Positions 6,202-6,418 of a DNA stretch of 34,583 nucleotides are shown here, in pieces (positions within the stretch are counted from its first letter, which is position 1; each line of letters starts with the position of its first letter). A program made the position numbers and the translations under genes. This stretch comes from Candidatus Saccharimonadota bacterium (lineage in GTDB: Bacteria; Patescibacteriota; Saccharimonadia; Saccharimonadales; JACDFO01), in assembly GCA_013815785.1 (NCBI GenBank), contig JACDFO010000003.1, forward strand, positions 1 to 34,583, written 5' to 3'. The notes beneath the pieces are model-generated. The model had not been told where the DNA came from. It searched no databases and saw only the letters and a list, made by a program, of their open reading frames with translations.

Positions 6202-6418
6202 CCAGAACTTACGCGCATGGATGCAGGATGGCTTTTCTCGGCGAGAAGCGGGGTCCCCAAACGGAGAGGATTCCGTTTGGGGTGCAGAAGCGAAACAAGC
6301 CGTACAGAGAGTACGGTGAAGTGAGCATCGCAGACAAAAAAGCCATCCTGCGCCATGAGCTCTCGCAGAGTCGACAGCTCTGCTGGTGGCTGAGCGAGAG
6401 AGGCGCGTAAGGTTCTGG
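6202..6418 (+). ncRNA. Candidate structured RNA (copy A), leader of the histidine kinase gene or independent ncRNA
   Basis: Nested helices: CCAGAACTTACGCGC (6202-6216)/GCGCGTAAGGTTCTGG (6403-6418); GCAGGATGGCTTTT (6223-6236)/AAAAGCCATCCTGC (6338-6351), 14 bp perfect; CCCCAAACGG/CCGTTTGGGG (6255-6282); CCGTAC/GTACGG (6300-6316); CTCTCGC/GCGAGAG (6360-6400). Confidence 0.7.

What the first reader, a model, noticed from the sequence alone, without database searches (positions are those of the whole stretch)
6202..6418. Compact multi-helix RNA candidate running up to the histidine kinase start codon
Seen: five nested or branching helices, including a 14-bp perfect helix, a 10-bp perfect hairpin and a closing stem whose 3' strand ends 2 nt before the GTG at 6421. 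Linkers such as GCAGAAGCGAAACAA and GGTGAAGTGAGCATCGCAGACAAAAA are purine-rich on the + strand. Inference: either a riboswitch-like element masking the kinase start region, or an independent ncRNA. I cannot place it in a known family; raiA-like and other large CPR RNAs should be tested as alternatives.
Basis: partly seen in the sequence, partly recalled or inferred. Interest (0 to 1): 0.85.

Follow-up and report, generated by a model that had tools for sequence, protein, structure and literature searches.

The report
Mobile RNA-folding repeat entering proteins
The structured stretch in front of the kinase gene is one of 18 copies, in this small bacterial genome, of an apparently undescribed 170-base mobile palindromic repeat that keeps the same three-armed fold and that has also inserted itself, in frame and without stop codons, into the middle of conserved protein genes across Saccharibacteria.

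Summary
In detail: 6202-6418 folds at about -120 kcal/mol (z = -10.5), with no Rfam match. It is not a kinase riboswitch. It is copy A of a dispersed repeat; copy B is at 8714-8883 (minus strand). A covariance model finds 18 copies in this genome, copies in 71 of 120 Saccharimonadales genomes, and in 21 sampled genomes of other Patescibacteria classes. Structure: closing stem P1, long arm P2 with a conserved purine-rich internal loop, and arm P3. In 137 copies not used to build the model, 56 of 61 pairs show compensatory change. Copies favour no particular gene or strand. About 30 of 159 lie inside protein genes (GlmS, UvrD, Der, Fpg, TGT, TypA and others) as in-frame insertions of 56-58 residues; a same-genus genome and eight further relatives have the empty Fpg site. 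This is the lifestyle of Rickettsia palindromic elements, with a different fold and host phylum. The mobiliser is unknown; a RAYT-like HUH transposase is a weak candidate. Copy A also carries a nested 42-bp hairpin flanked by a 7-bp direct repeat.

The parts
6202..6418 (+). Copy A of the repeat (217 nt; 175 nt without the nested 42-bp insert)
   Evidence: fold z = -10.5; CM hit 76.9 bits, E 2.8e-16 in own genome
6202..6216 (+). P1 5' strand (terminal inverted repeat)
   Evidence: helix list; covariation of P1 in other copies
6403..6418 (+). P1 3' strand; holds AAGG 8 nt before the kinase GTG
   Evidence: helix list; sequence
6217..6356 (+). P2 arm: base 6217-6236/6338-6356, purine-rich internal loop, apical hairpin 6299-6317 (GCCGTAC/GTACGGT)
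6251..6292 (+). Nested 42-bp hairpin module X (CCCCAAACGGAGAGGATTCCGTTTGGGG at 6255-6282), with a 7-bp direct repeat AGAAGCG at 6244-6250 and 6286-6292
   Evidence: sequence; the same hairpin occurs elsewhere in this genome and in 4 other genomes
6360..6400 (+). P3 arm
8714..8883 (-). Copy B of the repeat (170 nt, no nested module)
   Evidence: CM hit 124.4 bits, E 4.2e-28; fold z = -4.25
6421..7953 (+). Downstream gene: sensor histidine kinase (HisKA + HATPase_c); neighbour, not part of the element
   Evidence: Pfam
4954..6192 (+). Upstream gene: DUF3048 protein; neighbour, ends 9 nt before the element
   Evidence: Pfam

Best explanation
Copy A is one member of a family of about 170-bp non-autonomous mobile palindromic elements of Patescibacteria, richest in Saccharimonadales. 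Shown: the plus strand of each copy folds into the same three-way junction (P1, P2, P3), and the fold is maintained by compensatory change; copies are dispersed, share no gene or strand association, and occur both between genes and inside conserved protein genes as in-frame insertions of 56-58 codons; orthologous empty sites exist. Inferred: the folded single strand (RNA or ssDNA) is what the mobilising machinery recognises, which keeps the fold while the stem sequences drift. Insertions persist where they do no harm: in the short spacers of these compact genomes, or in loops of proteins when one preferred sense frame (hydrophilic, rich in R, Q, S, G, A, E) or an antisense frame is free of stops, so that the host protein carries a translated linker. 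The mobiliser is not identified; a RAYT-like HUH transposase is the only candidate with any support. In front of the kinase, copy A fills the spacer, and any effect on kinase translation is incidental or secondary.
For: Multicopy and range: 18 copies in own genome; 71 of 120 genomes of the order at E <= 0.01; 28 of 294 genomes drawn over the phylum at E <= 0.001, 21 of them of other classes. Covariation: 46 of 54 pairs in the first 15 copies; in 137 copies not in the model, MAFFT-aligned without structure, 56 of 61 pairs have compensatory changes in 3 or more copies, with 621 G-U against 240 A-C cells. In-gene, in-frame: GlmS, UvrD, Der, TypA, MurC/D-like, Fpg, TGT, RluA, PrmC and others by sequence; homology to solved structures is interrupted by the insert in TGT, GlmS, UvrD and Der. 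TGT relatives with and without the 57-residue insert, and one with an insert at a second position. Fpg: filled in 3 genomes, empty in 9, including G082 of the same genus as filled G114. Preferred sense frame stop-free in 24 of 32 in-gene copies against 30 of 127 others, p = 1e-7. Similar copies at different sites of one genome, up to 87% identical.
Against: No transposition has been observed and no mobiliser is proven: RAYT-like genes are not surrounded by extra copies (8 copies in 243 kb). Copies within one genome are on average only 59% identical, so most are old; some positions are shared between families, which also fits long retention for a function. No clean target-site duplication was identified for the main element. 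Translation of the inserts is inferred from open frames, not measured. The 3' end of intergenic copies lies within 5 nt of a gene boundary far more often than the 5' end (56/124 against 6/121), which this explanation does not predict.
Confidence: 0.82

Rival explanations
1. A family of functional small RNAs or cis-regulatory RNAs: each copy is transcribed (from its own promoter or in a UTR) and binds a common protein or acts on neighbouring genes; the in-gene copies are by-products.
For: Strong fold conservation in every copy; some positions conserved between families; TATAAT weakly enriched 16-20 nt upstream, 7 of 125 in that bin against 0-2 in others; the P1 3' strand often carries AGG plus the start codon of a sense downstream gene.
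Against: No strand bias relative to flanking genes (38 sense, 43 antisense), unrelated neighbours, copy number from 1 to 23 or more by genome, absence from many relatives, and in-frame insertions in unrelated genes.
Confidence: 0.15
2. A refinement of the best explanation: the elements are mobilised as single-stranded DNA by the RAYT-like HUH (Y1) transposase found in these genomes, as REPINs are thought to be.
For: Y1_Tnp gene in own genome (ORF; NCBIfam REP_Tyr_transpos 37 bits, below its cut-off of 80); copies present in 33 of 39 genomes with Y1 against 38 of 81 without, p = 7e-5; reverse transcriptase shows no such association, p = 0.48.
Against: Many copy-rich genomes lack a detected Y1 gene (e.g. 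G030, G046, G064, G086, G106); no enrichment of copies around RAYT genes; the association is confounded by lineage.
Confidence: 0.3
3. A small self-splicing or excised intervening sequence (intron-like) that is removed from the mRNA.
For: Three-way-junction fold with a closing stem at the boundaries; occurs inside genes.
Against: In-gene copies keep the reading frame and are stop-free in the frame used, which splicing would not require; both orientations occur in genes; no Rfam intron match.
Confidence: 0.05
4. Riboswitch masking the start of this histidine kinase.
For: P1 holds the AAGG upstream of the GTG.
Against: The same element sits at unrelated genes in both orientations.
Confidence: 0.03

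Closest known systems
Rickettsia palindromic elements (RPE), and protein-coding palindromic repeats of Wolbachia
   Same: Short palindromic repeats with folded transcripts and terminal inverted repeats, between genes and in frame inside unrelated conserved protein genes; mobiliser unknown (PMC2229807, PMC10969869)
   Different: RPEs are 105-150 bp long stem-loops of Rickettsiales; this is a 170-nt three-way junction with a conserved purine-rich internal loop, in Patescibacteria; sequence relation to RPE families not tested
REP / REPIN elements with RAYT transposases
   Same: Dispersed folding repeats; RAYT-like Y1 genes present in many of the same genomes
   Different: REPs are 20-40 bp and extragenic (PMC3733652 abstract); here 170 bp, often inside genes, not clustered near RAYT genes
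Other bacterial MITE-like repeats (ERIC, YPAL/RU-2, Correia/NEMIS)
   Same: 100-200 bp, highly base-paired, occasional in-frame fusions (PMC2229807)
   Different: Other hosts and, as far as known from that review, other folds; direct sequence comparison not made
raiA and other Rfam ncRNAs
   Same: About 200-nt conserved structured RNA
   Different: No Rfam match at curated or permissive thresholds

Membership tests
Rickettsia palindromic elements (RPE) | Dispersed palindromic repeats of roughly 100-150 bp with terminal inverted repeats | tested here: met
   18 copies, closing stem of 13 or more bp at the ends; length about 170, slightly longer
Rickettsia palindromic elements (RPE) | In-frame insertion inside unrelated conserved protein genes | tested here: met
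   GlmS, UvrD, Der, TGT, Fpg
Rickettsia palindromic elements (RPE) | Found in Rickettsiales | tested here: not met
   Hosts are Saccharimonadales and other Patescibacteria
Rickettsia palindromic elements (RPE) | Sequence related to one of the RPE families | not tested
   No Rickettsia genome or RPE sequence was reachable with the tools used
REP/REPIN | 20-40 bp palindrome, extragenic | tested here: not met
   170 nt, about 20% inside long open frames
REP/REPIN | Associated RAYT gene flanked by copies | tested here: not met
   40 RAYT-like neighbourhoods carry 8 copies in 243 kb, no excess
Riboswitch / cis-regulatory 5' leader RNA | Sense orientation upstream of a consistent gene set | tested here: not met
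Known Rfam RNA family (raiA, group I/II intron, others) | Covariance-model match | tested here: not met
Protein-coding palindromic element | Insert peptide present in the mature host protein | not testable with these tools
   Open frames and empty sites only

The most novel reading that the evidence does not exclude
A new class of protein-coding mobile element whose propagation depends on a conserved three-way-junction fold of one strand, moving as RNA or as transcription-coupled ssDNA: the fold is kept while stems drift, in-gene copies are mostly sense (28 of 32), and the 3' end lands flush with gene boundaries.
Probability: 0.3. Interest if true: 0.9.

Novelty: new variant of a known kind. 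Interest (0 to 1): 0.78.

Why it matters
In-frame palindromic elements inside conserved genes are best known as a peculiarity of Rickettsiales. Here the same lifestyle appears in a distant, equally reduced, host-dependent phylum, in hundreds of copies and with very clear structural covariation, so the questions of how such elements move, why the fold is kept, and whether they seed new protein segments become testable by comparative genomics and with cultivated Saccharibacteria. Practically, the 57-residue inserts explain odd low-complexity insertions in Patescibacteria protein annotations, and a covariance model can annotate or mask them.

Tried and rejected
Rfam at curated and permissive thresholds: nothing. 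BLAST in phages and plasmids and an exact core pattern in viral contigs: nothing, so no sign of a viral or plasmid carrier. Reverse transcriptase as mobiliser: not associated, absent from own genome. RAYT neighbourhoods: no enrichment. A guide model, in which the 3' strand of P1 is host sequence and the 5' strand a guide, was dropped after the TGT and Fpg alignments showed that both P1 strands lie inside the insertion. Target-site duplication: none clear for the main element. Kinase homologue neighbourhoods: only one distant relative, uninformative. The structure prediction for TGT with insert gives low confidence over most of the insert (pLDDT below 50 for 288-337) but also over the C-terminal part, so it is only weak support for a disordered linker. 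Literature searches found no earlier description in Saccharibacteria or Patescibacteria; the library is open-access only, so absence of a description is not proven.

Full report
Observation. The stretch 6202-6418 is as described: a closing stem 6202-6216/6403-6418 that ends 2 nt before the kinase GTG, a long P2 arm with 14 Watson-Crick pairs in a row, a perfect 11-bp hairpin (6255-6282), an apical hairpin 6299-6317 and a P3 arm 6360-6400. Fold energy of 6195-6425 is -121.8 kcal/mol, z = -10.5, none of 200 shuffles as good. No Rfam family matches.

Copies. BLAST in the own genome gave partial matches at four other places, two of which share only the inner hairpin module. In 298 genomes of the order, 22 had BLAST matches. 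Fifteen full copies, aligned by MAFFT without structure, gave an RNAalifold consensus of 54 pairs, 46 of them with compensatory changes. The resulting covariance model finds 18 copies in the own genome, including copy A and copy B (window 8714-8883, minus strand), and copies in 71 of 120 genomes of the order, with counts up to the scoring limit of 23 per genome. Over the phylum, 28 of 294 drawn genomes have a match at E <= 0.001: five of the same order, two of the same class and 21 of other classes. One family of the order (f35) is nearly free of it, which also serves as a natural control for the model.

Fold. I located 159 copies. In 137 full-length copies that were not in the model, aligned without structure, 61 pairs are predicted; 56 have compensatory changes in at least three copies, most pairs form in 90% or more of copies, and G-U cells (621) exceed A-C cells (240), which says that the plus strand as drawn is the folded strand. 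The fold is a three-way junction: P1, a P2 arm starting UUGGAUGC/GCGCCAA with a purine-rich internal loop and the tip GCCGUAC/GUACGGU, and P3. Shorter variants of about 120-145 nt exist.

Context. Copies are next to unrelated genes. Between co-oriented genes they are sense in 38 and antisense in 43 cases. In an operon containing glmS the copies sit at different junctions in four genomes. Other positions are shared between families, for example before a HAD-family gene in three genomes, so copies can persist.

Inside genes. 32 of 159 copies are spanned by long open frames, 28 in sense. The inserts are 56-58 residues in GlmS, UvrD, Der, TypA, MurC/D-type ligases, Fpg, TGT and others (names by sequence, tested by homology search for TGT, GlmS, UvrD and Der). 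phmmer against solved structures splits at the insert in those four. Among TGT proteins, most relatives read NARHGTAWITGDKKIHLTN or close to it, while others carry about 57 residues between WI and GD, and P0082 carries an insert at a second place. For Fpg, G114, G075 and G067 are filled; G082 of the same genus as G114 and eight further relatives are empty, with a plain short loop. The preferred sense frame is stop-free in 24 of 32 in-gene copies but only in 30 of 127 others (p = 1e-7). The encoded peptide itself is recognisable between unrelated host proteins. These are the defining habits of Rickettsia palindromic elements (PMC10969869, PMC2229807).

Mobility. Similar copies at different sites of one genome reach 87% identity in G063. 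In some such pairs the P2 arm is most alike, while P3 and the outer P1 differ but still pair. A RAYT-like HUH transposase occurs in the own genome, and such genes are associated with presence of copies over genomes (33/39 against 38/81, p = 7e-5), while reverse transcriptase is not; but copies do not cluster near RAYT genes. I treat it as a candidate only.

Unexplained. The 3' end of intergenic copies lies within 5 nt of a start or stop codon in 56 of 124 cases, the 5' end in 6 of 121. Where the downstream gene is in sense, the P1 3' strand often reads GTAGGTTGTG or GTAGGTCATG, supplying an SD-like AGG and the start codon. Start positions come from longest-ORF calls, but the stop-codon half of the comparison does not depend on them. 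Upstream of the 5' end TATAAT is weakly enriched. In-gene copies are mostly sense although antisense frames are more often open.

Copy A in particular. It carries a 42-bp insert (6251-6292) with a 7-bp direct repeat AGAAGCG; the same hairpin, with a covarying stem and the invariant loop GAGAGGATT, occurs in five of 120 genomes, elsewhere in this genome, and at a similar place inside the element of G072 (L007). So copy A looks like a nested element.

Conclusion. Most likely this is a protein-coding mobile palindromic element family of Patescibacteria, a new variant of the RPE kind; how it moves is open.

Noticed in passing
window 6251-6292; L003, L004, L008, L018, L019, L027: Second repeated hairpin module X (GGGGTCCCCAAnnnGAGAGGATTCnnnTTGGGGT), with covarying stem and invariant loop, found in 5 of 120 genomes; nested in copy A and in L007, elsewhere in other multi-hairpin contexts.
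   Followed up: partly
159 copies, 3' ends: The 3' end of intergenic copies is flush with a start or stop codon in 45% of cases, the 5' end in 5%.
   Followed up: partly
L046 and P0001-P0007, P0081, P0092, P0115, P0119: In TGT the antisense insert encodes HxPCxC ... CKxCG, a cysteine pattern kept in many metagenomic TGTs; possibly a co-opted metal-binding insertion.
   Followed up: no
L197 2806-3420 (own genome contig C14): RAYT-like Y1 transposase, 204 aa, below the NCBIfam cut-off for REP_Tyr_transpos.
   Followed up: partly
family f35 genomes (e.g. G034, G055, G066): One well-sampled family of the order is almost free of the element.
   Followed up: no
window 33683-33711 and 33914-33942: 97% identical 29-nt direct repeat, 231 nt apart.
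   Followed up: no
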